A stretch of DNA of 64,000 nucleotides from NCBI RefSeq assembly GCF_014126825.1, contig NZ_CP059900.1:4106954-4170953 (forward strand), read 5' to 3'. Position 1 is the first letter of the stretch. Each line of letters starts with the position of its first letter. A model generated the notes under the pieces. That model had not been told where the DNA came from. It worked only from the letters and a program-made list of their open reading frames with translations, and did no database searches. Positions 15,348 to 59,721 of this stretch are shown piece by piece. The DNA is from Tomitella gaofuii. Its GTDB lineage: Bacteria; Actinomycetota; Actinomycetes; Mycobacteriales; Mycobacteriaceae. The position numbers and the translations under genes are program-made.

Positions 15348-15412
15348 GCCGATCACGCAGAAACTGCACATTCCCGGGCCGGAACTGACACTTTCTACTG
15401 GGTCGGCGGGGC
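15348..15412. repeat. palindromic intergenic repeat, copy A
   Basis: A degenerate member of the CAAGCGGAT/CCGAAACGTGC palindrome family: GCCGATCACGCAGAAACTGCAC on the left, CCGGAAC in the centre, TACTGGGTCGGCGGGG on the right. It lies between the 45-residue gene and the convergent map gene; copy B lies just beyond the other side of map/xre. Confidence 0.6.
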
Positions 15413-15424
15413 GCAGACTCCGTC

Positions 15425-16195
15425 TCACCCGGCCCGGGCCGTCAGCACCAGCGGCTCGCCTTCGGTGACGGCGATGGTGTGCTCGCTGTGGGCGGTGCGT
15501 GAGCCGTCGGCCGAGCGGATGGTCCACCCGTCCGGGTCGTACACGATCCCGTCGGTGCCGCGGGCGAACCAGGGCTCGAGCGCCAGAGTGAGCCCCGGCC
15601 GCAGCGCCATGCCGCGCCCGGCCCGCCCCCGGTTGGACACGTGCGGGTCCTCGTGCATGGTGCGGCCCAGCCCGTGCCCGCCGAACTCCGTGTTCACCGG
15701 GTAGCCGTACTCGTCGGCGACGGCGCCGATGGCCGCCGAGACGTCGCCGAGCCTGTTGCCGGCCTGTGCGGCGGCGATGCCGGCGGCGAGCGCAGTCTCG
15801 GTGGCTTCGATGAGCCGCCGGTCCTCGGCGCGGGGTGTTCCGACGATGACGCTGCGCGCCGAGTCCGCCACCCAGCCGCCTATCGAGACGGCGATGTCCA
15901 TGCTGAGCAGGTCGCCGTCGCGCAGGGCGTAGTCGTGCGGCAGCCCGTGCAGCACGGCGTCGTTGACCGAGAGGCAGATGACGTTGCGGAACGGACCGCG
16001 GCCGAACGACGGGGCGTAGTCCCAGTAGCAGGACTGCGCGCCGCGTTCGGTGATCAGTGTGCGGGCACGGCGTTCCAGGTCCAGGAGGTTCACGCCCGCT
16101 TCCACGTGCGATTGCAGGTCGTCGAGCAGGCCCGCGATGAAGGAGCCGGTGACGCGCATCGACTCGATCTCGCGGGGCGTCTTCAGTTCCACCAT
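15425..16195 (-). CDS. map: Methionine aminopeptidase type I
   Basis: Cytoplasmic metallopeptidase removing N-terminal methionine, 256 residues. All five metal ligands are visible: two Asp in SMDIAVSIGGWVADSARS, His in FGGHGLGRTMHEDP, and two Glu in LALEPW and AHSEHTIAV. ATG 16195 is preferred over ATG 16201 because GAGGAGG then has ideal spacing. It is divergent from an 88-residue Xre regulator, and its promoter region contains two GGTAT/ATACC dyads. A regulated extra map copy is unusual, since map is normally housekeeping; another copy probably exists elsewhere. Confidence 0.93.
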   Translation of the reverse strand: MVELKTPREIESMRVTGSFIAGLLDDLQSHVEAGVNLLDLERRARTLITERGAQSCYWDYAPSFGRGPFRNVICLSVNDAVLHGLPHDYALRDGDLLSMDIAVSIGGWVADSARSVIVGTPRAEDRRLIEATETALAAGIAAAQAGNRLGDVSAAIGAVADEYGYPVNTEFGGHGLGRTMHEDPHVSNRGRAGRGMALRPGLTLALEPWFARGTDGIVYDPDGWTIRSADGSRTAHSEHTIAVTEGEPLVLTARAG

Positions 16196-16225
16196 GTGCA
16201 TCCTCCTCAGCCACGCCATCAAAAC

Positions 16226-16239
16226 GGTATATAAATACC
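16226..16239. promoter_or_regulatory. GGTAT-N4-ATACC operator candidate 1
   Basis: Inverted repeat of five-base arms in the map/xre divergent promoter. On the map side the AT-rich centre would overlap the -10 region. The centre lies about 30 bp (three helical turns) from the second dyad. Confidence 0.55.
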
Positions 16240-16255
16240 AGCCTAGCCTTGCGTC

Positions 16256-16270
16256 GGTATTTTCATACCG
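16256..16270. promoter_or_regulatory. GGTAT-N5-ATACC operator candidate 2
   Basis: Second dyad with the same GGTAT/ATACC arms (extending to CGGTAT/ATACCG), just upstream of the xre -10 element. It is probably bound by the adjacent Xre protein. Confidence 0.55.
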
Positions 16271-16280
16271 GGGGGGGCGG

Positions 16281-16286
16281 TAGAAT
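16281..16286 (+). promoter_or_regulatory. -10 element of leaderless xre promoter
   Basis: TAGAAT, six bases, then ATG 16293. It is close to the consensus -10 and the spacing places transcription start at the start codon. Confidence 0.6.
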
Positions 16287-16292
16287 GTGCGC

Positions 16293-16559
16293 ATGGTGCG
16301 ATCCCCCCTGACCCCGGAGCAGCGGGCGGCCGGCAAGCGGCTGGGCGCCCGCCTGCGCGCAGCCCGCGGCGATCGCCGGCCGGATGAGGTGGCCCGTGCC
16401 GCGGCGATCTCACCGGAGACCCTCCGCAAGATCGAGACCGGCCGCCTGGCCACCCCGGCGTTCACGACCGTGGCCGCGCTCGCGTCGGTGCTGGGCATCC
16501 CGCTGGACGAGCTCGCCCGCATCGCCCTGCCGAACCTGGGCCTGCAGCGCACCGGGTGA
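16293..16559 (+). CDS. Xre-family helix-turn-helix regulator
   Basis: An 88-residue single-domain DNA-binding protein of the Xre/HTH_3 type. The helix-turn-helix spans about residues 30-70 (VARAAAISPETLRKIETGRLATPAFTTVAALASVLGI). It starts at ATG 16293 without a ribosome site but with a leaderless-type -10. It is divergent from map, and the two GGTAT dyads between them make it the obvious candidate repressor or activator of map and of itself. Confidence 0.85.
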   Translation: MVRSPLTPEQRAAGKRLGARLRAARGDRRPDEVARAAAISPETLRKIETGRLATPAFTTVAALASVLGIPLDELARIALPNLGLQRTG

Positions 16560-16584
16560 CCGGGGACATCGCGGTGCCGTGCCG

Positions 16585-16647
16585 CGCCGATCAAGCGGAT
16601 AGTGCACGTTCGCGGGCCGGAATCGACCTTTTCTGCTTGGTCGGCGG
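16585..16647. repeat. palindromic intergenic repeat, copy B
   Basis: GCCGATCAAGCGGATAGTGCACGTT on the left and CTTTTCTGCTTGGTCGGCGG on the right, with GGGCCGGAATC in the centre. It has the same orientation as copy A by the central motif. Copies A and B bracket map and xre (about 1.2 kb). Confidence 0.7.
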
Positions 16648-16685
16648 TGCACGCCGCGCACCCCCACCGGAGCCCGGCCCGCCCG

Positions 16686-17099
16686 TCAGTCCTGCCGGTA
16701 GTACACGTGCGTCCCGGCCGGCGGCCGATCGGTGGACACGATGTCCTTGCCGAACGGGAAGCAGGTCACCGGGATCATCTTGATGTTGGCCAGCGCCAGG
16801 GGGATGCCGATGATCGTGATCGCCTGCACGAACGCGGTGGCGATGTGTCCGAGCGCCATCCACAGCCCGGCGATGACGAACCAGATCACGTTCATCACCA
16901 GCGAGGGCGACCCCGCCTCGGGCTTGTCCACCACCGTGCGCCCGAACGGCCACAGCGCGAACACGCCCATGCGGAATGCCGCGATGCCGAACGGGATGGT
17001 GATGATGAGGATGCACAGCACGATGCCGATCGCGAAGTAGCCGAGCGCCAGCCACAGCCCGCCGAACACCAGCCAGATCACGTTGAGCAGCAGGTTCAT
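16686..17099 (-). CDS. YccF-domain inner membrane protein
   Basis: A 137-residue protein with two similar YccF repeats, each a pair of hydrophobic segments: LLLNVIWLVFGGLWLALGY, and later VMNVIWFVIAGLWMALGH, each followed by an ITIPFGIAA or ITIIGIPLA strand. The family is widespread and its role is unknown. The ATG at 17099 has GGGAGGGGAG upstream. It is downstream of, and on the same strand as, the D-amino acid dehydrogenase gene; the 94-bp gap leaves co-transcription open. Confidence 0.88.
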   Translation of the reverse strand: MNLLLNVIWLVFGGLWLALGYFAIGIVLCILIITIPFGIAAFRMGVFALWPFGRTVVDKPEAGSPSLVMNVIWFVIAGLWMALGHIATAFVQAITIIGIPLALANIKMIPVTCFPFGKDIVSTDRPPAGTHVYYRQD

Positions 17100-17193
17100 C
17101 GCACTCCCCTCCCGAGTGTCCGGGCGCGAGCCGACCCACGCGCCGCCTGGGCCCCATCATGCCCGAATCCGCGGTCCGGCCGTGCGCTTCCGG

Positions 17194-18507
17194 TCAGCGC
17201 AGCGGATCGAACGCCGCGATGTCCTCGGGGGTGCGGCCGGTGTCGATGGCCTCGGCGAGCAGCATGCCCGTCGCCGGCCCCAGCGTCATGCCCCACATGC
17301 CGTGGCCGCCGGCGACGAACACGCGCTGCGAGCCCGTCGCCCCGATGAGCGGCAACCCGTCGGCGGTGCAGGGGCGCGACCCCACCCACTCGTCCCGGCG
17401 GTCGTCGAGGTCCACGCCCGTGAGCAGGGGGCGCACCGAGTCGACGACGGCGGCGATCCGGCGCGGGTCCATGGGGGCGTCATGATGCCGGAACTCCATC
17501 ATCCCGGCCACCCGCAGCCGATCTCCCAGCGGAGTGCAGGCGACCCGCGAGACCGGGAAGTACAGGGGCCCCGGCGGAGTCCTGTCCACCGGCACGCTGA
17601 AGCTGTAGCCGCGGCCGGCCCGCACCTGGGCGCGCACGCCGAAGCGGCCGGCCATCGCGTTGAGGTCCGCGCCGTCGGCGAGCACCACCGCGTCGGCTTC
17701 GAAATCGACCGCATCGCCGGCGGCCACCCCGGCCCCACCCGCACCAGCACCATCGACGGCTTCGCCGACCACCGCGGACCGCCGCCCCCGGTCCCGCACC
17801 GCGTCGATCCGGACCCCGCCGCGCACCGCGCCGCCCCGCGCAGTGACCGCGTCGGCGAGCGCGGCGACGAACTTCGGCGGATGCAGGTACCGCTGCCCCT
17901 GGAGCAGCAGCGTGGCCCGCACTGCGGAAGAGAGCATGGGTGCACGCCGCCGCGCCTCGTCGATGGGCAGCTCGTCCACCTGCACCGGCTGGCCAGCGTC
18001 GGTGATCTGCCGGGCCTCGTCCACCATCGACTGCGTCTGGGAGGGGTCGGTGTATCCGACGATGAACGGGTCGGCCTCGTGCAGGCAGCCGGCCATCGCC
18101 TCGTCGTCGCGCACCATCTTGTCGAACGCCTCGAGGGCATGGCGGTTGATGCGCACCAGCGATTCCATGGCCCTGCGCCATCTGCGGGGCGTGCTGTTGC
18201 GCGCGAACCGCGCGAGGAACCCCACCAGTCCCGGGTCGAGCGCGGCCGACGGCGGCACGTACACCGGCGACGACGGGCGCAGCAGCTGCCGGAGACCGTA
18301 GGCGAGGACGGCGGGCTCGGGCAGCGGGGTGCTGAGCGCGGGCGTGATCCACCCGGCATTGCCCCACGACGAGCCCGCAGCGGGCCCGTTCTCGTCGAAC
18401 ACCGTCACCTCGATGCCCCGTTCCTGCAGGTGCCACGCGGTGGACAGGCCCACCATCCCCGCACCGACCACGGCGACACTGCGCAATTCACCGTTCCGGA
18501 CCGTCAT
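17194..18507 (-). CDS. dadA: D-amino acid dehydrogenase (DadA-like FAD oxidoreductase)
   Basis: A 437-residue FAD-dependent oxidoreductase of the DAO fold that deaminates D-amino acids to 2-oxo acids. The Rossmann motif VAVVGAGMVGLSTAWHL is at the N-terminus. The DadA signature after it (SSWGNAGWITP) and the C-terminal GSRPCTADGLPLIG and GGHGMWGMTLGPATG are clear. A Gly/Ala-rich insertion (GEAVDGAGAGGAGVAAGD) between the FAD and substrate parts is lineage-specific. The ATG has AAGGAG. No amino acid racemase is adjacent. Confidence 0.88.
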   Translation of the reverse strand: MTVRNGELRSVAVVGAGMVGLSTAWHLQERGIEVTVFDENGPAAGSSWGNAGWITPALSTPLPEPAVLAYGLRQLLRPSSPVYVPPSAALDPGLVGFLARFARNSTPRRWRRAMESLVRINRHALEAFDKMVRDDEAMAGCLHEADPFIVGYTDPSQTQSMVDEARQITDAGQPVQVDELPIDEARRRAPMLSSAVRATLLLQGQRYLHPPKFVAALADAVTARGGAVRGGVRIDAVRDRGRRSAVVGEAVDGAGAGGAGVAAGDAVDFEADAVVLADGADLNAMAGRFGVRAQVRAGRGYSFSVPVDRTPPGPLYFPVSRVACTPLGDRLRVAGMMEFRHHDAPMDPRRIAAVVDSVRPLLTGVDLDDRRDEWVGSRPCTADGLPLIGATGSQRVFVAGGHGMWGMTLGPATGMLLAEAIDTGRTPEDIAAFDPLR

Positions 18508-18629
18508 CGCCCGCTCCTTCCGACGTGCGGCGCCCCTCCCCCGATCATGGCCCTTCGGCCGCCGGCCCGGCCACCCTCGGTGGAATGCCCCGCCGCCGGG
18601 GCGAGGGAGTCCCGGTCAACCGTCAGCGT

Positions 18630-19235
18630 TCAGCCTTCTATGAGCAGTTGGATCGAGCGGCCGTAGTACCGCACGATCTCGCCGTCGGATGCCGCGGCCA
18701 GCCCGGGATCCTCCACCACGTGCATCGACGTCATGAGCCCGGTGAGCTGCGCGGCCATGAGCCGGGCGCGCAGGTCCGCGTCGGCGCCGGCGAGCCTGCC
18801 TGCCACCAGGCCGACGAACATCTCCTCCACCGTCTCGGCCAGGTGCGCGCGCACGGTCGGCCGGTCGGAGGCGCGCAGCAGCGCGGCGAAGACGCCCGCC
18901 GAGTAGGACCGCTCCCCGTCCGCCCCGCCGGGCCGCGTCCGTTCCAGGACGAAGTCGACGGCCCGCTCGCCCAGCCCGTCCAGCGGGCCCGCCATCAGGT
19001 CGGCGAAGTCCACCGACATCGTCATGGTCCGCAGAAACAGCTTCTCCTTGGAGCCGAAGTAGCGGATGACCAGCGCGGGGTCCACGCCCGCCTCGCCCGC
19101 GATCTCGCGCACGCCGGTCGCGGTGAACCCCTTCTCGCTGAACAGCCGCGCCGCGGCCTGCTGCACCGCGTCGCGATGATGCCGGGGCCCCACCGCCGTG
19201 CCGTCGGACTCCTCGCCGCTGCCCATCGGGCTCAT
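18630..19235 (-). CDS. TetR-family regulator
   Basis: A 201-residue TetR regulator: N-terminal HTH (AARLFSEKGFTATGVREIAGEAGVDPALVIRYFGSKEKLF) and a variable ligand-binding C-terminal domain. ATG 19235 is chosen for its GGAGGTGGGA ribosome site; the frame is open further upstream. It diverges from the NDH-2-like gene, and a perfect 13-bp palindrome lies between them (19330-19342), the probable operator. Confidence 0.9.
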   Translation of the reverse strand: MSPMGSGEESDGTAVGPRHHRDAVQQAAARLFSEKGFTATGVREIAGEAGVDPALVIRYFGSKEKLFLRTMTMSVDFADLMAGPLDGLGERAVDFVLERTRPGGADGERSYSAGVFAALLRASDRPTVRAHLAETVEEMFVGLVAGRLAGADADLRARLMAAQLTGLMTSMHVVEDPGLAAASDGEIVRYYGRSIQLLIEG

Positions 19236-19329
19236 TCCCACCTCCGTGTCGTGCCGTCGCCGTCGTCCCGCCCCCCAGTCAACTCTGCGCACACCGGCAC
19301 CGCACAGCGTGCGATGCACCCCCGCATGG

Positions 19330-19342
19330 TCAACATTGTTGA
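19330..19342. promoter_or_regulatory. TCAACA-T-TGTTGA palindrome, likely TetR operator
   Basis: Perfect 13-bp inverted repeat (six-base arms, one-base centre) in the 131-bp gap between the divergent tetR and NAD(P)H oxidoreductase genes, in an AT-rich pocket that would hold the promoters. Confidence 0.6.
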
Positions 19343-19366
19343 ATAATCGTACCGGCTCGAAATCGG

Positions 19367-20686
19367 ATGACGTCGACTAGTTTCATGGCCATGACATCAC
19401 GGGGCCCGGAGGCGACGGACGGGGAACTGCAGACGGTGCACCGCGAGGTCGTCGTCATCGGGGGAGGATTCGCCGGGCTCGCGCTCGCCGAACGCCTGGG
19501 CCGGGAGGGCGTCGAAGTCCTGCTCATCGACCGCAACAACTACCACCAGTTCAAGCCGCTCAACTACCAGGTGGCCACGTCCCAGCTCGGCATCAGCGAG
19601 GTCGGCTATCCGCTGCGCGGGATCTTCCGGCGGCACGACTCGGTGAAGGTCGCCGTGGGCGAGGTGGTGGCGGTCGATCCGGAAGCCCGGTCGGTCACCC
19701 TCGCCGACGGCACCGTGTGCACCTCCCGCATCCTGGTGCTGGGGGTGGGCGTGGACGCGAACTTCTTCGGCGTCCCGGGCGCCGAGGAGCACTGCTATCC
19801 GATGTACACGCTCGAGGACGCGGAGCGGCTCAGCCGGCGCCTCATCGGCGAGCTCGACCGCGTCGACTCGCCCCTGGGCATCACCTCCGACATCGACGTC
19901 GTGATCGTGGGCGGCGGCCCGACGGGCGTCGAGCTGGCCGGCGCCATCGCCGAGAACCTCCGGGTGGTGATCGCCCCGCGCTATGACGGCGGGATCGCCG
20001 GCAAGGTGACGGTGCACCTGGTCGACCACGGCGACGCGCTGCTCAAACCGTTCTCCGACGCGTCCCACTCCTATGCACGGCGCGAGCTGGAGCAGTTGGG
20101 CGTGCAATTGCACTTCGGCACCTCGGTGACGAGCGTGTCGGCCGACGGCGTGGAACTCGGCGACGGCAGCCGCATCGGCTCGGGCACCGTGGTGTGGGCC
20201 GGCGGGCAGCGTCCGCCGAGCCTCATCGCCGATTCGTCCCTGCCCCTGGGGCACGGCGGGCGCATCAGTGTCGACGACGACCTGACGGTGCCCGGGCACG
20301 AGGGCGTCTACGCGCTGGGCGACATCGCGCTGATCCCCGACACCCACGGCCGCGGCGGCAAGACCGCGTCGCTACCGCAGCTGGGCTCGGTGGCACAGCA
20401 GTCGGGCCGACATGCCGCCCGCAACATCCTGGCGGACCTGGCGGGACGCGACCGCTCCCCATTCAAGTACCGCGACAAGGGGATCATGGCGATGATCGGC
20501 CGCGGCGCGGCGGTGGCGGAGCTCGGGCGGGGCCGCCGGCAGATCCAGGGGCACGTCGCGTTCCTCGCCTGGCTGGGTGTGCACGTGATGCTGCTGCCCA
20601 GCGCGTGGCAGCGGGTGGCCGCAGTGAGCTCGTGGGTCACCGACTACGGCACGTCGCTGCGGCCGCGGCGCGTCAACGTGGGCTGA
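19367..20686 (+). CDS. type II NADH dehydrogenase-like FAD oxidoreductase
   Basis: A 439-residue two-dinucleotide-binding-domain flavoprotein. It has an FAD motif VVVIGGGFAGLALAERL, an NAD motif VVIVGGGPTGVELAGAIAE, a second FAD site (GVYALGDIALIP), and a C-terminal amphipathic or hydrophobic segment (FLAWLGVHVMLLPSAW) typical of membrane-associated NDH-2 enzymes passing electrons to menaquinone. The start could be ATG 19367, 19385 or 19391; none has a clear ribosome site. Regulation by the divergent TetR is likely. Confidence 0.87.
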   Translation: MTSTSFMAMTSRGPEATDGELQTVHREVVVIGGGFAGLALAERLGREGVEVLLIDRNNYHQFKPLNYQVATSQLGISEVGYPLRGIFRRHDSVKVAVGEVVAVDPEARSVTLADGTVCTSRILVLGVGVDANFFGVPGAEEHCYPMYTLEDAERLSRRLIGELDRVDSPLGITSDIDVVIVGGGPTGVELAGAIAENLRVVIAPRYDGGIAGKVTVHLVDHGDALLKPFSDASHSYARRELEQLGVQLHFGTSVTSVSADGVELGDGSRIGSGTVVWAGGQRPPSLIADSSLPLGHGGRISVDDDLTVPGHEGVYALGDIALIPDTHGRGGKTASLPQLGSVAQQSGRHAARNILADLAGRDRSPFKYRDKGIMAMIGRGAAVAELGRGRRQIQGHVAFLAWLGVHVMLLPSAWQRVAAVSSWVTDYGTSLRPRRVNVG

Positions 20687-20691
20687 GGGCC

Positions 20692-20714
20692 GCAGCCGCT
20701 CGCTCCGCGGCTGC
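20692..20714. terminator. short stem-loop between convergent genes
   Basis: GCAGCCGC, seven-base loop, GCGGCTGC. It is placed in the 31-bp gap between the convergent oxidoreductase and marR genes. There is no U tract, so termination is only inferred from position. Confidence 0.35.
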
Positions 20715-20717
20715 CGC

Positions 20718-21221
20718 TCACTCCTGCGCCGCGCGCTCCGCGTTCGCCGTCACGCGGCGCAGCAGGTCCAGCAGGACGGCGCGTTCGTCGTCGTCGAGCC
20801 CCGCGAGCAGGCGCCGGTCGCGCTCGACGCGCGCGGGGAAGACCTTCCGCACCAGCTCGCGGCCCGCGTCGGTGATCTGCAGCAGCACCACGCGCTTGTC
20901 CTGTTCCCACGTGCCGCGCTCGACGAGCCCCTTGCGCACCAGCGCATCGACGTACTTGGTGGTGGCGGCGGGGCTGACCATCGTGGTCGTCGTGACCTCG
21001 CCGGGTCGCAGCGGATGGTCGCTGCGCACCAGGGCGCCGAGCAGCTCGTACTCCCCGCGTGAGACCGCCGTGTGCGCCAGTTCGTGCTCGAGCGCGCGGA
21101 GACTCAGCGTGCCGATGCGCGCGATGCGGACGATCACCTCGACGGGCGCGAGGCCGACGTCCGGGAACGCGGAATCCCATTCGTCGACGATCCTGTCGAC
21201 CAGGTCGCCGTCGGAGTGCAT
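20718..21221 (-). CDS. MarR-family regulator
   Basis: A 167-residue winged-helix MarR protein. The recognition region is PGEVTTTTMVSPAATTKYVDALVRKGLVERG, the wing contains EQDKRVVLLQITDAG, and dimerisation helices lie at both ends. ATG 21221 is chosen because TAGCCT lies exactly six bases upstream (21228-21233), fitting a leaderless start; GTG 21227 is an alternative. It is divergent from the FUSC transporter with a tandem 11-bp repeat between them, so it probably controls that transporter and itself. Confidence 0.88.
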   Translation of the reverse strand: MHSDGDLVDRIVDEWDSAFPDVGLAPVEVIVRIARIGTLSLRALEHELAHTAVSRGEYELLGALVRSDHPLRPGEVTTTTMVSPAATTKYVDALVRKGLVERGTWEQDKRVVLLQITDAGRELVRKVFPARVERDRRLLAGLDDDERAVLLDLLRRVTANAERAAQE

Positions 21222-21227
21222 GCGCAC

Positions 21228-21233
21228 AGGCTA
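21228..21233 (-). promoter_or_regulatory. -10 element of leaderless marR promoter
   Basis: TAGCCT on the minus strand, six bases before ATG 21221. Confidence 0.5.
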
Positions 21234-21253
21234 ACGCATCCCGCATCACATTA

Positions 21254-21275
21254 TTTTACTTGTGTTTTACTTGTG
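21254..21275. promoter_or_regulatory. tandem 11-bp direct repeat, candidate MarR operator
   Basis: TTTTACTTGTG occurs twice head-to-tail (21254-21264 and 21265-21275) in the 71-bp gap between marR and the FUSC gene, followed by TAGTAT (21276-21281) as a probable -10 for the FUSC gene. The 11-bp period is about one helical turn. Confidence 0.5.
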
Positions 21276-21292
21276 TAGTATTCTGATCGACG

Positions 21293-24224: not shown

Positions 24225-24240
24225 CCGGACCCCGCTCGAC

Positions 24241-24288
24241 AACACCGGAGCCCGGCGCGCTCTCCGGAGCGCGCCGGGCTCCGGTGTT
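24241..24288 (+). terminator. strong hairpin terminator after the MHS transporter
   Basis: Perfect 21-bp inverted repeat (24241-24261 and 24268-24288) with loop CTCCGG, 16 bp after the stop codon. There is no poly-U run, as is common for actinobacterial terminators. Confidence 0.75.
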
Positions 24289-24320
24289 GCACGGTGCGTG
24301 TCAGGCCTCACACGAGAATC

Positions 24321-24368: not shown

Positions 24369-24500
24369 CACGCCGGGCCGTGCCCACCGCCGCCCGGCAC
24401 GTGGATTCTTTCCTGATAATTCGAGGACGCGACTGCATGACCACTGCCGAAACCGCCCGCAACGCCCCGCCCGGCACACCTCCCCGCCGGCACCGCGCCG

Positions 24501-26165: not shown

Positions 26166-26171
26166 GGCGCG

Positions 26172-29034: not shown

Positions 29035-29073
29035 GCGCCGTGGCCTCCCCCGCCGCCGGGGAGGCCACGGCGC
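29035..29073. terminator. perfect 16-bp hairpin between convergent genes
   Basis: GCGCCGTGGCCTCCCC (29035-29050), seven-base loop, exact complement at 29058-29073. It can act as a bidirectional terminator for the DUF305 and DUF4185 genes. Confidence 0.75.
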
Positions 29074-30113: not shown

Positions 30114-30244
30114 CGCGCATCACCTCCCGGCGCCGCCGACGGGTGCCGACGTCCTGTTCCGCCCCCGAGGCTACTGGCCGCCGGCCTCCGGAGCCGGTAT
30201 CCGCGGTGTGGGCGCGCCGCTGATCGCCTGAGCCCGTCTGAGCC

Positions 30245-30308
30245 CGCCGACCAAGCTTTTTCCGCACGTTCGGCGGCGCAGACGTGCACTGGATGCTTGC
30301 TCGGCGGG
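30245..30308. repeat. palindromic intergenic repeat, copy C
   Basis: CGCCGACCAAGC on the left, CGCACGTT then ACGTGC around the centre, GCTTGCTCGGCGGGG on the right. By the central motif it is in reverse orientation (minus strand CCGAACGTGC). It is in a divergent gap, so it is not simply a terminator. With copy D it brackets the ABC/ABC/TetR operon. Confidence 0.65.
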
Positions 30309-32506: not shown

Positions 32507-32529
32507 GGGGCGGGGCAGGTCCTCAGCCG

Positions 32530-32591
32530 GCTGATCAAGCGATCCGTGCACGTTTCGGCCACTCGAACGTGCACAGATCGCTTGATCGTCG
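32530..32591. repeat. palindromic intergenic repeat, copy D
   Basis: Arms 32533-32554 and 32566-32587 pair over 22 bp with one mismatch (GATCAAGCGATC and GTGCACGTT segments). The minus strand reads CCGAAACGTGC at the loop, so orientation is reverse, as in copy C. Could also serve as terminator of the ABC operon. Confidence 0.8.
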
Positions 32592-32689
32592 ACGTCGGAG
32601 TGCCGCGAATCCCACCGACCCGCCGTGGGTGTCGGCCCCGTGCGGCAGGATGTATACCACGGTGCAGGAGCAAGGGGAGGCGGTTGCTG

Positions 32690-53126: not shown

Positions 53127-53360
53127 TCAGGCGGGGCGGCGCAGTTCGTGTTCGGCGGCGCGGCGCAGCCACGCTGATACTGAACGGTCGTCAGCCTCGG
53201 CGGCGCGGCGGATCTGCTCGAGCAACTTGGGCGGAAACCGCACCGGCACCGGATCCGACAGTCTGGGCCGGCGACGCACCGCCGGGCCTTGGGGCTTCTG
53301 ATTCTCCGACTGCGCGTAGAAGTCGTATTCCTGTTCTGGAGTCATCGGCTTGGTGTTCAT
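53127..53360 (-). CDS. RHH antitoxin of a BrnTA-like module
   Basis: A 77-residue protein with an extended, Pro/Arg-rich N-terminus (PMTPEQEYDFYAQSENQKPQ) and a C-terminal ribbon-helix-helix (PVPVRFPPKLLEQIRRAAEA, DDRSVSAWLRRAAEHEL). ATG 53360 has GGAGGGACCG and overlaps the toxin stop (ATGA). It is encoded after the toxin, as in BrnTA. Likely represses its own promoter. Confidence 0.78.
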   Translation of the reverse strand: MNTKPMTPEQEYDFYAQSENQKPQGPAVRRRPRLSDPVPVRFPPKLLEQIRRAAEADDRSVSAWLRRAAEHELRRPA

Positions 53361-53662
53361 CGGTCCCTCCGATACTGCTCGGCGAGGCTGTGTGACGCTT
53401 GGTAGCACCCGATAGGGCGGCAGCGGCGGGGATCGCCCGACCGCGCCGGTGCCGGGGGCACGACGAGCACCATCCCTGCCACTTCGGCGCACATCAGCCA
53501 GTGTGCGGGCGGCTTCGCCGGATAGAACAACGGACCGGTCGCCCACACGTCGGCGATGTCGTCGACACCCAGGCGCGGGTGCTTGAACAGGTGTGCGGCG
53601 TGAACGTCGATCTCGAACGGATCCTCGTCGTCGAGCAAGTTCGGATCGAAGAGTTCACCCAC
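53357..53662 (-). CDS. BrnT-like toxin
   Basis: A 101-residue protein similar in pattern to BrnT (RelE-fold RNase): FEIDVHAAHLFKHPRLGVDDIADVWA corresponds to the FEWDxxKxxxNxxKHxVxFxxAxxVF start, followed by WLMCAEVAGMVLVVPPAP and RCRPIGCYQASHSLAEQYRRD at the end, where BrnT has RxIsARxAxxxExxxY. Toxin-first gene order supports this. GTG 53662 lies exactly six bases after TACATT; a TTG at 53680 would lengthen it. The identity as BrnT is probable, not certain. Confidence 0.68.
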   Translation of the reverse strand: MGELFDPNLLDDEDPFEIDVHAAHLFKHPRLGVDDIADVWATGPLFYPAKPPAHWLMCAEVAGMVLVVPPAPARSGDPRRCRPIGCYQASHSLAEQYRRDR

Positions 53663-53668
53663 ACCCAA

Positions 53669-53674
53669 AATGTA
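53669..53674 (-). promoter_or_regulatory. -10 element of leaderless BrnTA-like promoter
   Basis: TACATT on the minus strand, six bases before GTG 53662. Confidence 0.5.
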
Positions 53675-53769
53675 ATACAAACGAATACGAAGCGCTCAAC
53701 TTTCGGAGTTCGTCGCACTCCCTCGAACTTCGGCGGGCCCGCCTCTGCGCGGACCCGCAGGCGATGCCC

Positions 53770-55377
53770 CTACCGCCGCCCCTCCCACAGCGCGCGGGTC
53801 GACGCCTCGGGATCGTCCACCACCGCCGGTCCGCCGTCGGCTCCCACTCCGTCGCCGGCCCCGCCGCCTGCGCTGCCATGTCCGAACATGCGCACCGTGC
53901 GCCGGGCGCCGTACTCGTCCCAGCCCGGGTGCCCGGACTCGATGAAGCGCACCCATGCCCCGTGCATCGCGTCGGCCAGGTGCTGCGGAGGATTCGGCCC
54001 GGTCATGGGACGCGCGTCGGGGTGGGCGAGGGTGTCGAAGACGAAGCCGAGCTCCATCGCGTGGGCCGCGCCCAGCAGCCCGCCGAGCTCCGGCGACCTC
54101 CAGCCGAACTCGTACACGAAGCTTCCCGCGCCGTGCACCGCGCGCGCCTCCACCACCCGGATCGCGGGGATGCGGAAGAACACGTCCCGCATCAACGCCA
54201 TGAACAGCACCCCCGCCCGCTGCTCCGGCGGCAGGGCCGGCCCGGCGGCCGCGTAGGCGCCCACCGCCTCGTCGGCGTCCAGTCCCATCGACGCGGCCAG
54301 CCCCCGCACGCCGGCCTCCGTCATCGCGGCGTCCAGCCCGAACGGCACCGTGAACAGCGCGAACTCGTCGGCGTTCGTCCCGGTGAGCAGCCCGACGGAC
54401 GCCCCCGCGCCGCCCGCGATCCGGTCGATGGGGCGCCCGGGCAGGACGCTCCCGTCGACGCACGGTTCGAACGCCATCCCGTCCACCGCGGCCTCGCCCC
54501 ACCGGGTCGGGTCGGGCTGTGCGGCGATCCGCTCGGACAGCGCGCGCTGCGCGTCGATCAATTCCGCGATCGGCACCGTGCCCAGCCCCTCGGCGGTCGC
54601 CGCCACCCCCAGCGACTCGGCCAGCGCCGCCGTCACGGTGCGCGCCGTCTCCGGGTGCATGGCGTGATGCCCGGCGCCGCTCTGGGTGATGGCCCGCTGG
54701 AACAGCCCGTCCGCCGCGGGCATCGCCATCAGCGCGGTCACGCTCATCGCCCCGGCCGACTCGCCCGCCACCGTCACCCGGCGCGCGTCGCCGCCGAACG
54801 CGGCGATGTTGTCGCGCACCCACTCCAGCGCCGCCACCTGGTCGAGCAGCCCGCGGTTGGCCGGCGCGATGCCCGGCGCGTCCGGCAGCAGGGCGAACCC
54901 CTCCGCCCCGAGCCGGTAGTTCACCGTCACGCACACCACCCCGCTGCGTGCGAACGCCGACCCGTCATACAACGGCACCGCACCGGTGCCGTTGACGAAG
55001 GCACCGCCGTGGATCCACACGAGCACCGGCAGGCCCACCGAGCCGGTGTCCGGCGACCACACGTTGAGGTTGAGGACGTCCTCGCCCGGAATCGACGGCT
55101 CCGGCAGCAACGTGTCGATGGGCGCGCGGTACGGCGGCTTGGGCGGGGTGGGTCCGTAGTCCAGCGCGTCGCGCACGCCCTCCCAGGGCACCACCGGCTG
55201 CGGCGGCGCAAACCGGTTCTCCCCGTACGGCGGGGCCGCGAACGGGATGCCCTTGAACGCGGTGACCTGCGCGTGCCCGTTCTCGTGCCCGTGCCCGTTC
55301 TCGTGCTGGGCGTGTCCGTGCTGTGCACTGCGCACGCCGCGCACTGCGCCCGCTGCCGTCTCCACCACCACGTCCAT
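53770..55377 (-). CDS. type B carboxylesterase with a His-rich insertion
   Basis: A 535-residue carboxylesterase (COesterase, alpha/beta fold). Oxyanion loop WIHGGAFVNGTG, nucleophile GESAGAMS, the acid probably in GTNADEFALF, and the histidine in FIESGHPGWDEYG. Near the N-terminus, between VRGVRSAQ and FKGIPFAAPP, is a His/Gly/Asn-rich insert (HGHAQHENGHGHENGHAQ) encoded by short tandem repeats at about 55265-55325, not found in the family. It may bind metal, notable next to copB, or be neutral. ATG 55377 has GGAGG. Confidence 0.9.
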   Translation of the reverse strand: MDVVVETAAGAVRGVRSAQHGHAQHENGHGHENGHAQVTAFKGIPFAAPPYGENRFAPPQPVVPWEGVRDALDYGPTPPKPPYRAPIDTLLPEPSIPGEDVLNLNVWSPDTGSVGLPVLVWIHGGAFVNGTGAVPLYDGSAFARSGVVCVTVNYRLGAEGFALLPDAPGIAPANRGLLDQVAALEWVRDNIAAFGGDARRVTVAGESAGAMSVTALMAMPAADGLFQRAITQSGAGHHAMHPETARTVTAALAESLGVAATAEGLGTVPIAELIDAQRALSERIAAQPDPTRWGEAAVDGMAFEPCVDGSVLPGRPIDRIAGGAGASVGLLTGTNADEFALFTVPFGLDAAMTEAGVRGLAASMGLDADEAVGAYAAAGPALPPEQRAGVLFMALMRDVFFRIPAIRVVEARAVHGAGSFVYEFGWRSPELGGLLGAAHAMELGFVFDTLAHPDARPMTGPNPPQHLADAMHGAWVRFIESGHPGWDEYGARRTVRMFGHGSAGGGAGDGVGADGGPAVVDDPEASTRALWEGRR

Positions 55378-55468
55378 GCGTACCTCCGCTCCGCGCCCCC
55401 TCACCGGCAGCCTAGGCAGCGCGGGCGGCGTCCGGCCCCGAATCGGCGGGGGCCCGGGCACGGGAGCA

Positions 55469-55531
55469 TGCCGACCAAGCGAAAACTGTCACCTCGGCGC
55501 CCGAAACGTGCAGAAAACGCTTGGTTGGCGG
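55469..55531. repeat. palindromic intergenic repeat, copy E
   Basis: GCCGACCAAGCG on the left, CCGAAACGTGCAG in the centre-right and CGCTTGGTTGGCGGG on the right. Forward orientation. It lies between the carboxylesterase start and the copB end. Confidence 0.7.
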
Positions 55532-55557
55532 GAAGGCGGGGGCGGCGGGGCTGCCGC

Positions 55558-57702
55558 TCACCCCGCGGCGACGGCCGCCGGTTCCCGCGCGGCCTCCGAC
55601 TGCACCGCGCCCGCCACCGTGGCCGGGTCCAGGTCGAGCCGGCGCAGCAGCTGTGCGTTGAGCGCCACCACCACCGTGGACAACGACATGAGCACCGCGC
55701 CCACCGACATCGGCATCGTGAACCCGACCGGCGCCAGCACCCCGGCGGCCAGCGGCACGCTGATCAGGTTGTAGCCGGCCGCCCACCACAGGTTCTGCTT
55801 CATCTTGCGGTACCCGGCACGCGAGAGCGCGATCACCGACAGCACCGCGCGCGGGTCGTCGCCGGCCAGGATCACCCCGGCCGAGCCGATCGCCACGTCG
55901 GTGCCCGCGCCGATCGCGATGCCGACGTCGGCCTGCGCCAGCGCGGGTGCGTCGTTGACCCCGTCGCCCACCATGGCCACCACCCGGCCGTCGTCCTGCA
56001 GCCCCTGCACGCGGGCCGCCTTGTCCTCCGGCCGCACCCCCGCGAAGACGCCGTCGACGCCCAGGTCGTCGGCCACGCTGCGGGCCACCGACTCGGCGTC
56101 GCCGGTGATGATCATCACGACCTCCACGCCCGCCCGGTGCAAGGCGTCCACAGCCGGCTGCGACTGGGGCCGCACCGCGTCGGCCACCGCGATCGCACCG
56201 ATCACTTCGCCGTCGCGCAGTACGTGCAGCACAGTGTCGCCGTGGTCGCGCCACCGCCGGGTGCCGTCGAGCGGGTCGCGCCCGGCCTCGCCCAGCAGGT
56301 GCGGACCGCCCACGCGCACCTCGGCGCCGTCGACCAGAGCCGTCACGCCCACCGCGGGCGACGACGAGAACTCCGCCGCGCCGGGCACCGCGAGGCCGTC
56401 CGCCTCGGCGCGGCGCACGATCGCCCGGGCCAGCGGGTGCTCGCTGGGTGCCTCGGCGGCGGCGGCCAGCGCCAGCACCCGCTCCTCGCCGCCCGGTTCG
56501 ACGGCGAGGAGGCCGGTGACCTCCGGCTCGCCCTCGGTGAGCGTGCCCGTCTTGTCGAACACCACCACGTCCACCGACCGCATACGCTCGAGCGCCAGCC
56601 GGTCCTTCACCAGCACCCCGGCGCGCGCCGCCCGCTCGGTGGCGATGGCCACCACCAGCGGGATCGCCAGCCCCAGGGCATGCGGGCAGGCGATGACGAG
56701 CACCGTGATCACCCGGACCACCGCGTCGTCCCCCGACCCGGCCAGTGCCCACGCGATCGCCGTGATCACCGCCGCGCCCAGGGCGAACCAGAACAGCAGC
56801 GCCGCCGCCCGGTCCGCGATGCGCTGGGCCCGCGACGACGACGCCTGCGCCTCCTCGACCAGCCGCCGGATGCCGGAGAGCGCCGTGTCGTCGCCCGTGG
56901 CCGTGACCCGCAGGCGCAGGCCCGAGTCGGTGGCCACCGTGCCCGCCACCACCGTGTCGCCCACGCCGCGGCGCACGGGGCGCGATTCGCCGGTGATCAT
57001 CGACTCGTCCACGTGCGCGGAGCCGTCGGTCACCTCACCGTCGACGGGGACGCTGCCGCCGGGGCGCACCAGGACGACGTCGCCCACGCGCAGGTCGGCG
57101 GGTTCGACGGCGGTGGTCTCGCCGGTGTCGGGGTCCAGGCGCTCGGCCTCGTCGGGCAGTAGCGTCGCCAGCGATTCGAGCGCCGAGGTGGTGCCGGCGA
57201 GCGAGCGCATCTCGATCCAGTGCCCCAGCAGCATGATCACTACGAGTAGGGCCAGCTCCCACCAGAACTCCAGGCCCGAGTCGAGGATCGACAGCGTCGC
57301 ACCCCACGACGACAGGAACGCAACGGTGATGCCCAGCGAGATGAGCAGCATCATGCCCGGCTGCCGCTTGCGCAGCTCGTCCCAGCCGCCGGTGAGGAAC
57401 GGGCGCCCGCCCCAGACGTACATGACGGTGCCGAGCACCGGCGAGATCCAGCCGACGCCGCCCGGCAGGTGGTAGCCGATCAGGTGCGCGAAGCCCCCGG
57501 AGAACGCCACCACCGGCACCGCCAGCAGCAGGTTGAACCAGAACAGGCGGCGGAACTGGGCGACGTGGCCCGCGTGGCCTCCCGCGCCGTGGGATCCGTG
57601 GCCGGCATGCGCATCGTGACCGACATGCGCATCGTGGCCGGAGTGGTCCCCGTGTTCCGCAGTGCCGGCGGGGCCGTGGTGCCCCGCCTCATGTCCGTTC
57701 AT
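55558..57702 (-). CDS. copB: copper-exporting P1B ATPase, CopB type
   Basis: A 714-residue heavy-metal P-type ATPase. The N-terminus is His-rich (HGDHSGHDAHVGHDAHAGHG) instead of CxxC domains. It has the actuator TGES, the membrane metal site ACPHALG (CPH marks the CopB/P1B-3 group), the phosphorylation site DKTGTLTEG, the nucleotide motif EHPLARAI and the hinge GDGVNDAPALAQ. It pumps Cu+ or Cu2+ outward. ATG 57702 has GAGGTGGAG. A CsoR-type box precedes it. No csoR gene is in the window. Confidence 0.93.
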   Translation of the reverse strand: MNGHEAGHHGPAGTAEHGDHSGHDAHVGHDAHAGHGSHGAGGHAGHVAQFRRLFWFNLLLAVPVVAFSGGFAHLIGYHLPGGVGWISPVLGTVMYVWGGRPFLTGGWDELRKRQPGMMLLISLGITVAFLSSWGATLSILDSGLEFWWELALLVVIMLLGHWIEMRSLAGTTSALESLATLLPDEAERLDPDTGETTAVEPADLRVGDVVLVRPGGSVPVDGEVTDGSAHVDESMITGESRPVRRGVGDTVVAGTVATDSGLRLRVTATGDDTALSGIRRLVEEAQASSSRAQRIADRAAALLFWFALGAAVITAIAWALAGSGDDAVVRVITVLVIACPHALGLAIPLVVAIATERAARAGVLVKDRLALERMRSVDVVVFDKTGTLTEGEPEVTGLLAVEPGGEERVLALAAAAEAPSEHPLARAIVRRAEADGLAVPGAAEFSSSPAVGVTALVDGAEVRVGGPHLLGEAGRDPLDGTRRWRDHGDTVLHVLRDGEVIGAIAVADAVRPQSQPAVDALHRAGVEVVMIITGDAESVARSVADDLGVDGVFAGVRPEDKAARVQGLQDDGRVVAMVGDGVNDAPALAQADVGIAIGAGTDVAIGSAGVILAGDDPRAVLSVIALSRAGYRKMKQNLWWAAGYNLISVPLAAGVLAPVGFTMPMSVGAVLMSLSTVVVALNAQLLRRLDLDPATVAGAVQSEAAREPAAVAAG

Positions 57703-57740
57703 CGTGCTCCACCTCGTCCGTGTCGCGCCCCGCCCGATCT

Positions 57741-57759
57741 TATACCCCCCTAGGGTATA
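57741..57759. promoter_or_regulatory. CsoR-type copper operator upstream of copB
   Basis: TATACCC-N5-GGGTATA, the pattern bound by CsoR-family copper sensors (TACCC.....GGGTA). On the minus strand the end reads TATAAG, a plausible -10, so binding would block copB transcription when copper is low. Confidence 0.75.
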
Positions 57760-57817
57760 TCTCACCGCCTCTATTGATAACCCATGCGCGGAGACTCGTC
57801 AAGAGGTCCGCAGCCGG

Positions 57818-57879
57818 CGCCGAGCAAGCGGATTCTGCACACCGGGCCGCCGAAACCGGCAGAAATCACTTGGTCGGCG
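57818..57879. repeat. palindromic intergenic repeat, copy F
   Basis: GCCGAGCAAGCGGATTCTGCAC left, CCGAAACCGGCAGAA then CTTGGTCGGCG right. Forward orientation. It lies in a divergent gap between copB and the DUF559 gene; with E it brackets copB and its operator. Confidence 0.72.
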
Positions 57880-58017
57880 AGGCAGCCTCACCGGCACGCC
57901 CGCGTCACCGGAGCAGTCGTCCACAGCCCGCACCGCTCTCCACAGGTTTCTACATCTCCCCAGGTCGCGGGTCCGCGCACGCGGGGGCGCCGGCACCGGA
58001 GCCGTCATGCTCGGCCC

Positions 58018-58896
58018 ATGGACATCGACAACGCACCATTCCGGGGTGCCGAGGCGCTGGCATCCGGGGCCGTCTCGCGGCGGCGGCTGGCCTCGCAGTA
58101 CCGGCGCATCCTCCCCGGCGTGTACCTGCGCGCCACGGCAGCGCTGAGCCCGCTCCGGCGCGCCCGGGCGGTGTGGCTGTGGTCCCGGGGACGCGCGGTG
58201 CTGGCCGGGGTGTCGGCGGCTGCGGTGCTGGGCGCGCAGTACCTGGGCGACCACACGCACGCCTGCTGCATCCGCGCCACGCCCCACCGCCTGGCGCCGC
58301 GGTATCGCTGGCTGCACGTGCATCAGGACTTGCTCGACGCCGGCGACGTGCGGCGGGTGCGGGGCATGGCCGTCACCTCGCCCGCCCGCACCGCCTTCGA
58401 CGTGGCCTGCCGCATGCCGTACCCCGCGAACGTCGAGGTCATCGATCAGATTTACCAGGCGACGACACTCACCCGCCGCCGGCTCGCCGAGTACGTCGCC
58501 CGGCACCCCGGCTTCCCCGGCATCACGCAGGCCGCCGCGGCCGTCGAGGCCTCCGACGAGGGCGCCGAGTCGGTGTGGGAGACCCGGGCGCGGATGGCCG
58601 TCGTCGCCTCCGGACTACCCCGCCCCGAGACGCAGGTCTACATCTACGACGCGGACGGCCGTTTCCTCGCGCGCGTCGACATGTGCTGGCCGCAGTACCG
58701 GGTGATCTTCGAGTACGACGGCGACGACCCGCACTCCACCACCAGGCAGCGCGACCGCGACATCACCCGCTGGAACGACCTCACAGACGCGGGGTATGCC
58801 GTCATCCGGGTGCGCGCGCCGCACCTGCAGGGCACCATGCCGCGGGTGCTGGGCCAGCTGCGGGCCGCACTCCGAAAGGCCGGCGCGGATGTGTGA
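58018..58896 (+). CDS. AbiEi-like/DUF559 protein
   Basis: A 292-residue protein with an N-terminal winged-helix-like segment (GAVSRRRLASQYRRILPGVYL) as in AbiEi-type antitoxins, a middle region TSPARTAFDVACRMP, and a C-terminal DUF559/Vsr-like restriction-endonuclease-fold segment (VDMCWPQYRVIFEYDGDDPHS, then GYAVIRVRAPHL; the D...E.DG pattern is present). Such fusions are numerous in Actinobacteria and of unknown function. ATG 58018 is six bases after CATGCT. No AbiEii partner follows. It is bracketed by repeats F and G. Confidence 0.75.
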   Translation: MDIDNAPFRGAEALASGAVSRRRLASQYRRILPGVYLRATAALSPLRRARAVWLWSRGRAVLAGVSAAAVLGAQYLGDHTHACCIRATPHRLAPRYRWLHVHQDLLDAGDVRRVRGMAVTSPARTAFDVACRMPYPANVEVIDQIYQATTLTRRRLAEYVARHPGFPGITQAAAAVEASDEGAESVWETRARMAVVASGLPRPETQVYIYDADGRFLARVDMCWPQYRVIFEYDGDDPHSTTRQRDRDITRWNDLTDAGYAVIRVRAPHLQGTMPRVLGQLRAALRKAGADV

Positions 58897-58900
58897 GAGG

Positions 58901-58960
58901 GCCCGAGCAAGCGGATTCGGCACGTTCTGCAGCCGAAACGTGCCGAATCCGCTTGCTCGG
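58901..58960. repeat. palindromic intergenic repeat, copy G (perfect 24-bp arms)
   Basis: Arms 58903-58926 and 58937-58960 are exact complements over 24 bp; loop CTGCAGCCGA. It includes CAAGCGGATTCGGCACGTT and its complement. Forward orientation, between the convergent DUF559 and vapC genes. It is the best-preserved copy and can fold as a long hairpin. Confidence 0.9.
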
Positions 58961-58978
58961 CCGAGTATCAGGTCAGGA

Positions 58979-59410
58979 CTACCGGCCCGCGTCGCCGGGC
59001 ACCAGCGTGAACGCGCCGCCGCGGTCCGTGTGCAGAACCGAGAAGTGCCGATGGTCGAGCGTGGCGATGCGGTCGGTGCCGTACCGCCCCGCGAGAACGA
59101 CGTTGGATGCGTCCGCCACGCCGATGTCCTGGTCGCGGTAGCGCTGCACCACCGCGCGGGCCTCGGCCAACTCCGCCGCGCCGAACTCCGGCAGGTCCCA
59201 TGCGCCCTGCGCCAGCTCGTCCAGCACCGCGAGTTCCGCGTCGACGCCGATCCTGGCGGCGACGAGATAGTCCAGCTCGGCGACGACGAACGGAGACACC
59301 ACCAGCGCACCGGCCTCCGCGGTGAGCGCCGCACTCACCGCGGCATGGTCGGGTTCGGAGGCGTCGAAGAATGCGAGCAGCGCGCTCGTGTCCACGATCA
59401 GCGCGGACAC
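58979..59410 (-). CDS. vapC: VapC toxin, PIN-domain RNase
   Basis: A 143-residue PIN nuclease. The acidic residues are visible: IVDTSALLAFFD at the start, VVAELDYLV in the middle, and DQDIGVADASNVVLAGRY plus RIATLDHRHF for the C-terminal acids. It cleaves tRNA or rRNA in known relatives. The start lies three bases after the vapB stop. It is bracketed with vapB by repeats G and H. Confidence 0.9.
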   Translation of the reverse strand: MSALIVDTSALLAFFDASEPDHAAVSAALTAEAGALVVSPFVVAELDYLVAARIGVDAELAVLDELAQGAWDLPEFGAAELAEARAVVQRYRDQDIGVADASNVVLAGRYGTDRIATLDHRHFSVLHTDRGGAFTLVPGDAGR

Positions 59411-59413
59411 GCC

Positions 59414-59629
59414 CTACCTCTCCCCGAAGCCGGCCAGGTGGGCGTCCGCCTCACGCGCGATCGGGCTGCCGCTGCGGAACAGGCCGCCACGTGGTCGCGG
59501 ACGCTCGCCCCCGACGCTGCGGGCGATGGACCGGCGGATCACTTCCGCCTCCGACACGCCCTCCCGCGCCGCGCTGCGGGCTACGGCGGCCTTCAGCTCG
59601 TCAGGAAGGTACAGCGTCGTCTTCTTCAT
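59414..59629 (-). CDS. vapB: VapB antitoxin, RHH type
   Basis: A 71-residue ribbon-helix-helix antitoxin: MKKTTLYLPDELKAAVARSA (strand and helix 1), EGVSEAEVIRRSIARSV (helix 2), then a basic/Gly linker and a toxin-binding tail (SPIAREADAHLAGFG). ATG 59629; TACCAT lies seven bases upstream, with dyads around it. Cotranscribed with vapC. Confidence 0.9.
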   Translation of the reverse strand: MKKTTLYLPDELKAAVARSAAREGVSEAEVIRRSIARSVGGERPRPRGGLFRSGSPIAREADAHLAGFGER

Positions 59630-59654
59630 GCCACATATGGTACCACCGGTGGCA
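59629..59654. promoter_or_regulatory. TGCCAC-N14-GTGGCA dyad over the vapB start
   Basis: Arms at 59629-59634 and 59649-59654. CCACCGGTGG (59643-59652) is a further perfect palindrome inside. The first arm covers the complement of the start codon. Likely VapBC autoregulatory site. Confidence 0.5.
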
Positions 59655-59660
59655 TAACGG

Positions 59661-59721
59661 CCTGAGCAAGCGGATTTGGCACGTTCCGCAGCCGAAACGT
59701 GCCGAATCCGCTTGGTGGGCC
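59661..59721. repeat. palindromic intergenic repeat, copy H
   Basis: CAAGCGGATTTGGCACGTT, loop CCGCAGCCGA, AACGTGCCGAATCCGCTTG: one T/C mismatch. Loop nearly identical to copy G. Forward orientation, between vapB and the end of the fadB-like gene. Confidence 0.88.

What the first reader, a model, noticed from the sequence alone, without database searches (positions are those of the whole stretch)
15348..59721. Eight-copy palindromic repeat family that brackets gene modules
About 60-bp inverted repeats occur at 15348, 16585, 30245, 32530, 55469, 57818, 58901 and 59661, always between genes. The shared parts are CAAGCGGATT near the left end, CCGAAACGTGC right of centre and CTTGNTCGGC at the right. 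The copies bracket discrete units: A-B around map/xre, C-D around the ABC/TetR operon, E-F around copB, F-G around the DUF559 gene, G-H around vapBC. Judged by the off-centre CCGAAACGTGC, each bracketing pair is in the same orientation (A, B, E-H forward; C, D reverse). That is what a site-specific recombination or cassette system would leave, though an ordinary scattered repeat in gene gaps could also look like this.
Basis: partly seen in the sequence, partly recalled or inferred. Interest (0 to 1): 0.8.

Follow-up and report, generated by a model that had tools for sequence, protein, structure and literature searches.

The report
Tomitella palindromes flanking toxin-antitoxin modules
A family of about thirty 62-letter near-palindromes, so far found only in a few species of the actinobacterium Tomitella, sits mostly just behind genes, keeps a short DNA word in each arm nearly unchanged, and marks places where small gene modules such as toxin-antitoxin pairs come and go.

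Summary
The eight repeats are real. They belong to a clade-restricted family: about 32 copies in this 4.35-Mb genome, 24 in G003 and 25 in G004 (Tomitella cavernea), none detected in two other same-genus genomes or in 26 relatives outside the genus. By my gene calls no copy lies inside a gene, and the 26 copies whose gap holds a gene end lie within 42 bp of a stop codon. By my reading 20 of 32 sit at the same place in all three species. Orthologous copies keep an outer box CGAnCAAG in both arms (4.6% changed) while the spacer beside it drifts (18.7%), which suggests selection in place, probably for a protein that binds them.

In most bracketed units (A-B, C-D, E-F, F-G) the gene content is fixed. 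But G-vapBC-H is a single palindrome in both relatives. Three further sites show palindrome-module-palindrome in one species and a single, remnant or missing form in another; two of those modules are TA pairs, one only probably. Copies flanking m1, m2 and m3 are about 92% alike.

I found no RAYT in the own genome, no clear solitary half-site and no obvious extra shared tyrosine recombinase. Best reading: REP-like, host-maintained palindromes whose near-identical neighbours recombine and swap modules. A true cassette (attC/pdif-like) system is not excluded.

The parts
15345..15410 (+). copy A, 15 bp from the stop of map (15425-16201, -)
   Evidence: CM hit 66.4 bits; counterparts in G003 L063:7450 and G004 L067:5867
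16583..16648 (+). copy B, 24 bp after xre (16293-16559, +)
   Evidence: CM hit 70.5 bits; counterparts in both relatives
30243..30308 (+). copy C, in a divergent gap upstream of the ABC operon; forward, not reverse
   Evidence: 66.7 bits + against 45.5 bits -; in G003; left arm decayed in G004
32527..32593 (-). copy D, 21 bp after the TetR stop
   Evidence: 73.9 bits; cleanly absent in G004; two copies around 3.2 kb in G003
55467..55532 (+). copy E, 26 bp from the copB stop
   Evidence: 65.5 bits; in all three species
57816..57881 (+). copy F, divergent gap copB / DUF559 gene
   Evidence: 71.1 bits; in all three species
58899..58964 (+). copy G, 3 bp after the DUF559 stop and 15 bp from the vapC stop
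   Evidence: 82.9 bits; left flank shared with the single copy of G004 and G003
58979..59410 (-). vapC-like toxin gene (PIN domain) of the variable module
   Evidence: PF01850 E 3.3e-13; no such module at the single palindrome of G003 and G004
59414..59629 (-). vapB-like antitoxin gene (RHH_1)
   Evidence: PF01402 E 2.8e-6
59658..59723 (+). copy H, 9 bp from the stop of the next gene (59732-61870, -)
   Evidence: 72.8 bits; 92% identical to G over 62 bp; right flank shared with the single copy of G004

Best explanation
A REP-like family of host-maintained DNA sites. Each copy is an inverted repeat of a bipartite half-site (CGAnCAAG, about 8 bp of A/T-leaning spacer, GC), about 62 bp in all with nearly constant length, mostly placed just behind gene ends. 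Shown: the family, its clade restriction in the genomes searched, its place near stop codons, the in-place conservation of the box, and modules present between two near-identical copies where a relative has one copy. Inferred: a host protein binds the box (as duplex or as extruded hairpin); neighbouring near-identical copies act as short homology, so that recombination between them removes or adds a module together with one palindrome. Toxin-antitoxin pairs are prominent among such modules perhaps because they survive well in gene gaps.
For: Clade restriction: 3 of 31 genomes hit at E up to 0.001, all of the window's genus; spaced-box pattern at chance level in 396 other genomes of the order, five single hits and five genomes with control hits. 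Placement: of 32 copies none lies inside a gene, two overlap a called gene end by 2 and 8 bp; the 26 with a 3' end in the gap are within 42 bp of a stop; 12 of 14 tandem-gap copies are nearer the upstream stop than the downstream start. In-place constraint over 46 syntenic pairs: box 29/636 changes, free position 24/91, spacer 135/722; box rate below spacer rate in 35 pairs, above in 4, equal in 7. Module turnover: m1 (own vapBC), m2 (3.2 kb in G003 at D), m3 (0.66 kb in G003), m4 (vapBC-like in G004, remnant in own, single palindrome in G003). Flanking pairs of m1, m2 and m3 are 92% identical over 62 bp (0.88, 0.91 and 0.91 over the full copies) and mutual nearest neighbours; adjacent copies are more alike than shuffled ones, p=0.0012 own and 0 of 20000 in G003. 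Breakpoint enrichment p=0.0014 in gaps of 66-300 bp.
Against: No binding protein identified. Homology of 62 bp is short for RecA-dependent recombination. The breakpoint enrichment depends on length matching (p=0.0014 to 0.067 over the cuts tried), and the loci were chosen around palindromes. Of 12 adjacent own pairs only G-H are mutual nearest neighbours, in G003 3 of 8. The m4 flanking copies are not near-identical (0.68 in G004, 0.55 in own). Subfamilies with other boxes (CTACTCAGC, GATCCAGC) exist, and one box change between species is a compensating double change (L030), which fits hairpin recognition rather than a fixed duplex word. Orthologs were mostly found by a model that itself weights the box, so the conservation is partly ascertained; three decayed copies found by synteny were included (C, L037 and L043:16005 in G004), but sites lost or internally deleted in G003 (L035, L043:10000, L045), absent sites, and L039 in G004 were left out.
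Confidence: 0.5

Rival explanations
1. A dispersed cassette system: the palindromes are recombination sites (attC- or pdif-like) and an unrecognised recombinase inserts circular modules, each bringing one palindrome.
For: Palindrome-module-palindrome in one species against a single copy in another at m1, m3 and m4, and at D in G003 against own; TA content of m1 and m4; a palindrome within 16 bp of the stop of the last gene in m1, m3 and m4; conserved outer box, ill-paired spacer, conserved inner G and an extra base near the loop resemble a folded site.
Against: The incoming copy should be unrelated to the resident one, but the two flanking copies are about 92% alike in m1, m2 and m3. No tyrosine recombinase common to the three carriers beyond two XerC/D-like genes in the listing. 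20 of 32 sites are static over three species by my reading. Serine recombinases were not searched.
Confidence: 0.2
2. Transcription terminators or mRNA 3'-end hairpins: the family is maintained because it ends transcription in both directions.
For: Location right behind stop codons; 12 of 32 between convergent genes against 36 of the 221 gaps of at least 66 bp in the same stretches, palindrome gaps included; stable stems in seven of eight window copies.
Against: Six copies in divergent gaps. Other unique hairpins exist and two lie just behind a family copy (L037:10123, L044:10080). Pairing is mostly not kept between species: 127 single changes that make or break a pair against 8 double changes that keep it, in 33 ungapped ortholog pairs. 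Constraint sits on words, not on the stem as a whole.
Confidence: 0.15
3. Ordinary non-autonomous mobile palindromes (MITE/REP remnants) now decaying, with no host role.
For: Whole-copy presence/absence with clean flanks: D absent in G004, L103 only in G003, L041:5195 and L042:10872 absent in G003; decayed copies (C, L037 and L043:16005 in G004, L045 in G003).
Against: Orthologous copies keep the box about four times better than the spacer, which decay would not do; no full-length element and no solitary half-site apart from one weak place; no RAYT in the own genome.
Confidence: 0.1
4. Chromosome-organising sites (like matS or parS) bound by a segregation or domain protein.
For: 25 of 32 copies lie in 3.02-4.17 Mb, on one side of the origin (dnaA at 0.8 kb; skew change between 2.26 and 2.73 Mb; positions); in-place constraint.
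Against: Clustering partly reflects local pairs; whole sites are gained and lost; does not explain module turnover.
Confidence: 0.05

Closest known systems
REP / REPIN elements (GTAG- and CGTC-tagged palindromes; PMC3733652, abstract and passages seen)
   Same: Short palindromes between genes, mainly downstream of coding regions and between unidirectional or convergent genes; many families of only 20-100 units; CGTC families lack a dedicated transposase.
   Different: About 62 bp with long imperfect arms instead of 20-40 bp; no constant unpaired tag seen; nearly constant length; found in an actinobacterium (the terms Actino, Mycobacterium and Corynebacter do not occur in that paper's main text); conservation of a word at orthologous sites and module turnover between copies.
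pdif/dif modules of Acinetobacter (PMC6449649, abstract seen)
   Same: Small adaptive modules with recombination sites on both flanks.
   Different: pdif sites are 28-bp XerC/XerD sites (recalled); the palindromes here are longer and in the chromosome.
Integron attC sites (recalled)
   Same: Imperfect palindromes of about 60 bp and more behind a gene; outer boxes conserved, ill-paired spacer, extra base; TA cassettes common.
   Different: No GTTRRRY/RYYYAAC boxes in the consensus; no array, no platform, no integrase identified; flanking copies are sister copies in m1 to m3.

Membership tests
REP elements mobilised by RAYT | RAYT (Y1) transposase in the genome | tested here: not met
   PF01797 0 matches in G000, with 5 of 14 control genomes ringing; not searched in G003 or G004
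REP elements mobilised by RAYT | short palindrome, intergenic, many near gene 3' ends | tested here: met
   26 of 32 copies within 42 bp of a called stop
REP elements mobilised by RAYT | unpaired GTAG or CGTC tag at one end | tested here: not met
   No constant tag at an end of the consensus, judged by eye; GTAG or CGTC occur in some copies, GTAG inside the stem
MITE | terminal inverted repeats shared with a full-length transposon | tested here: not met
   All half-site matches with up to 2 mismatches in G000, G003 and G004 lie within known palindromes, except one 2-mismatch place at G000:1346908
MITE | target-site duplication | tested here: inconclusive
   Empty sites show no clear duplication by eye
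Integron attC | R boxes RYYYAAC / GTTRRRY (recalled) | tested here: not met
   Box is CGAnCAAG / CTTGnTCG, compared by eye
Integron attC | integron integrase | tested here: inconclusive
   PF00589 in 5 genomes: only two XerC/D-like genes appear common to the carriers; IntI-specific model not run
pdif module | 28-bp XerC/XerD site (recalled) | tested here: inconclusive
   Layout of the aligned copies differs by eye; no dif model was run
Intrinsic terminator | hairpin at gene ends, stem conserved | tested here: inconclusive
   Location met, stem pairing mostly not kept between species
Known RNA family | match to an Rfam model | tested here: not met
   0 matches at gathering score in the window

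The most novel reading that the evidence does not exclude
A chromosome-wide, array-free cassette system in Tomitella: an unknown protein recognises CGAnCAAG inverted repeats (possibly as folded single strands) and inserts or excises small modules, often toxin-antitoxin pairs, at about thirty sites behind genes, each event adding or removing one palindrome.
Probability: 0.2. Interest if true: 0.85.

Novelty: new variant of a known kind. Interest (0 to 1): 0.52.

Why it matters
Small intergenic palindromes are often treated as decaying parasites. Here orthologous copies keep a defined word while the neighbouring spacer drifts, which predicts a specific binding protein, and neighbouring copies mark exact edges of module gain and loss. 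It gives a concrete handle on how toxin-antitoxin genes enter and leave chromosomes without an obvious integrase or transposase.

Tried and rejected
RAYT/Y1 source: none in the own genome. Solitary half-sites or a parent transposon: none apart from one weak place. Rfam: no match at gathering score in the window. Plasmids (copy G, blastn) and viral contigs (pattern): no match. Pattern scan of named genomes: six stretches, three from T. cavernea, the others single hits in two Streptomyces and one Lachnospiraceae, taken as chance without a control. PIN genes as a rule at palindromes: only 1 of 3 in own, 1 of 4 in G004 and 0 of 4 in G003. Compensatory evolution between orthologs as proof of a hairpin: not found (8 kept double changes among 221 changed pairs in 33 ungapped ortholog pairs), although covariation across 31 own copies is strong, which may reflect creation as palindromes. 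The 107-aa gene of m3 has no Pfam, NCBIfam or PDB match; its likeness to a BrnT-type toxin is recalled, its RHH partner passes Pfam's cut-off only for NikA-like and matches antitoxin models below their cut-offs, and distant homologues lie in 10 actinobacterial plasmid records. One partial model hit in own (3793031) was left out of the 32; one weak remnant copy (3604499) was kept. All genome-wide counts rest on a first look that scored 150 candidates per genome and are lower bounds.
Full report
What is there. The eight repeats exist at the stated places. They are imperfect palindromes of about 62 bp; seven of eight fold better than shuffles. Copy C is forward, so C and D are in opposite orientation. 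A covariance model of the eight found 29 distinct places in the chromosome; a second model of 31 copies gave 33 distinct places at E up to 1, of which I used 32. G003 has 24 copies and G004 25 (24, one more); two other same-genus genomes (G001, 81% complete, and G002) and 26 genomes outside the genus have none at E up to 0.001. A pattern with both boxes at fixed spacing, one mismatch allowed, gave 19 sites in the own genome; elsewhere in 396 genomes of the order it gave one site in each of five, and the backward control also hit five genomes (G001 to G004 are not in that list).

Where copies sit. With my own gene calls none of 32 copies lies inside a gene; two overlap a called gene end by 2 and 8 bp. 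Twelve are between convergent genes, 14 in tandem gaps and 6 in divergent gaps. The 26 with a gene end in their gap lie within 42 bp of a stop codon, and 12 of 14 tandem-gap copies are nearer the upstream stop than the downstream start. Other long hairpins, unique in sequence and terminator-like, occur in the same stretches; two lie just behind a family copy.

Conservation in place. By my reading, 23 of 24 G003 copies and all 25 G004 copies sit in gaps where the own genome also has a family copy (for G004 L115 the right flank alone agrees, at 75% identity). In the other direction 21 of 32 own copies have a counterpart in G003 and 28 of 32, three of them decayed, in G004; 20 are in all three. 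Palindromes are more alike between species than their 40-bp flanks (own-G004 0.85 against 0.73, n=23; own-G003 0.81 against 0.65, n=20), among copies that the model detected. Over 46 syntenic pairs the outer box CGAnCAAG (7 positions per arm) changed at 29 of 636 sites, its free position at 24 of 91, the adjoining spacer at 135 of 722, the inner GC at 14 of 181, the loop side at 133 of 894 and the rim at 94 of 450. In 35 pairs the box changed less than the spacer, in 4 more, in 7 equally. Across own copies the arms covary strongly (21 of 26 pairs with double changes, 0 of 500 shuffles as high), but between orthologs most changes are single and alter pairing. I read this as selection on the boxes, with palindromy left from how copies arise; one compensating box change (L030) speaks for a hairpin instead.

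Modules. m1: own has G-vapBC-H; G003 and G004 have one palindrome, and in G004 its left flank is that of G and its right flank that of H. m2: at site D the own genome has one copy, G004 none, and G003 two copies around 3.2 kb; of three ORFs scanned there one matches DUF6278 and the others no family above cut-off. m3: G003 has two copies around 0.66 kb with an RHH gene and a 107-aa gene of no known family, a probable TA pair; own and G004 have one copy. m4: G004 has two copies around a FitA/VapC-like pair; own keeps a roughly 165-bp vapC remnant between two copies; G003 has one copy. The flanking copies of m1, m2 and m3 are 92% identical over 62 bp, whereas those of m4 are not (0.68 in G004). 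In m2 the two G003 copies resemble copy C more than the own copy D (0.85-0.87 against 0.74). By aligned stretches G003 looks more distant from the own genome than G004 (for example 87% against 93% at L033); no tree was built. On that footing m1 is most simply a gain in the own lineage; polarity of the others is open. The gene content of the other bracketed units of the window is the same in the three species.

Statistics of breakpoints. Of 39 distinct indels of at least 200 bp in the compared stretches, 8 have a breakpoint within 30 bp of a palindrome and 6 have both ends within 40 bp. Gaps holding a breakpoint, palindrome gaps against others: 66-300 bp, 7 of 23 against 8 of 140 (p=0.0014); 90-500 bp, 8 of 28 against 11 of 137 (p=0.005); at least 66 bp, 9 of 31 against 30 of 190 (p=0.067); at least 20 bp, 9 of 31 against 34 of 248 (p=0.031); with 66 bp taken off palindrome gaps, 7 of 24 against 12 of 198 (p=0.0015). 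The stretches were chosen around palindromes.

Enzymes. No Y1 transposase in the own genome. Tyrosine recombinases: two high-scoring genes in each genome look like XerC and XerD (my inference from score and number); by the listing the others are not common to all three carriers. Serine recombinases and IntI-specific models were not searched.

Literature. Seven full-text searches. In their listings I saw no report of this family; Tomitella with genome and repeat gave 13 papers, 12 listed, none on such repeats by title or start of abstract. I saw the abstract and passages of PMC3733652 and the abstract of PMC6449649.

Verdict. A REP-like, clade-restricted palindrome family, probably under selection in place, whose close neighbours mark module gain and loss. 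A dedicated cassette enzyme is possible but not shown.

Noticed in passing
G000:C1:3.02-4.17 Mb: 25 of 32 copies lie in about a quarter of the chromosome, on one side of the origin (dnaA at 0.8 kb); G003 shows the same tendency because most sites are orthologous.
   Followed up: partly
L039:10066-10229 (G000 about 3,604,335-3,604,498): A roughly 165-bp remnant of a vapC-like gene between two palindromes, one decayed; an open pair is in G004.
   Followed up: yes
L041:14691 against L104:10019: Palindromes of the own genome and G004 that agree except for a block of five changes in the spacer and one at the end, more like a template switch than separate point changes.
   Followed up: no
L043:10000, L043:16005, L042:10872: A subfamily with the box CTACTCAGC instead of CGAnCAAGC but much the same length and layout.
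   Followed up: partly
G000:C1:94616-96971 and G002:C96:192-2550: Three tandem tyrosine-recombinase matches, as in recombinase-in-trio elements (name recalled); none such is listed for G003 or G004.
   Followed up: no
window 24240-24289, 29035-29073: GC-rich unique hairpins between genes, terminator-like, not of this family.
   Followed up: no
L036:3457-11306 against L115:2956-2990: A 7.8-kb segment in the own genome (genes that look catabolic by eye, and a second palindrome at 8747) where G004 has a single palindrome.
   Followed up: partly
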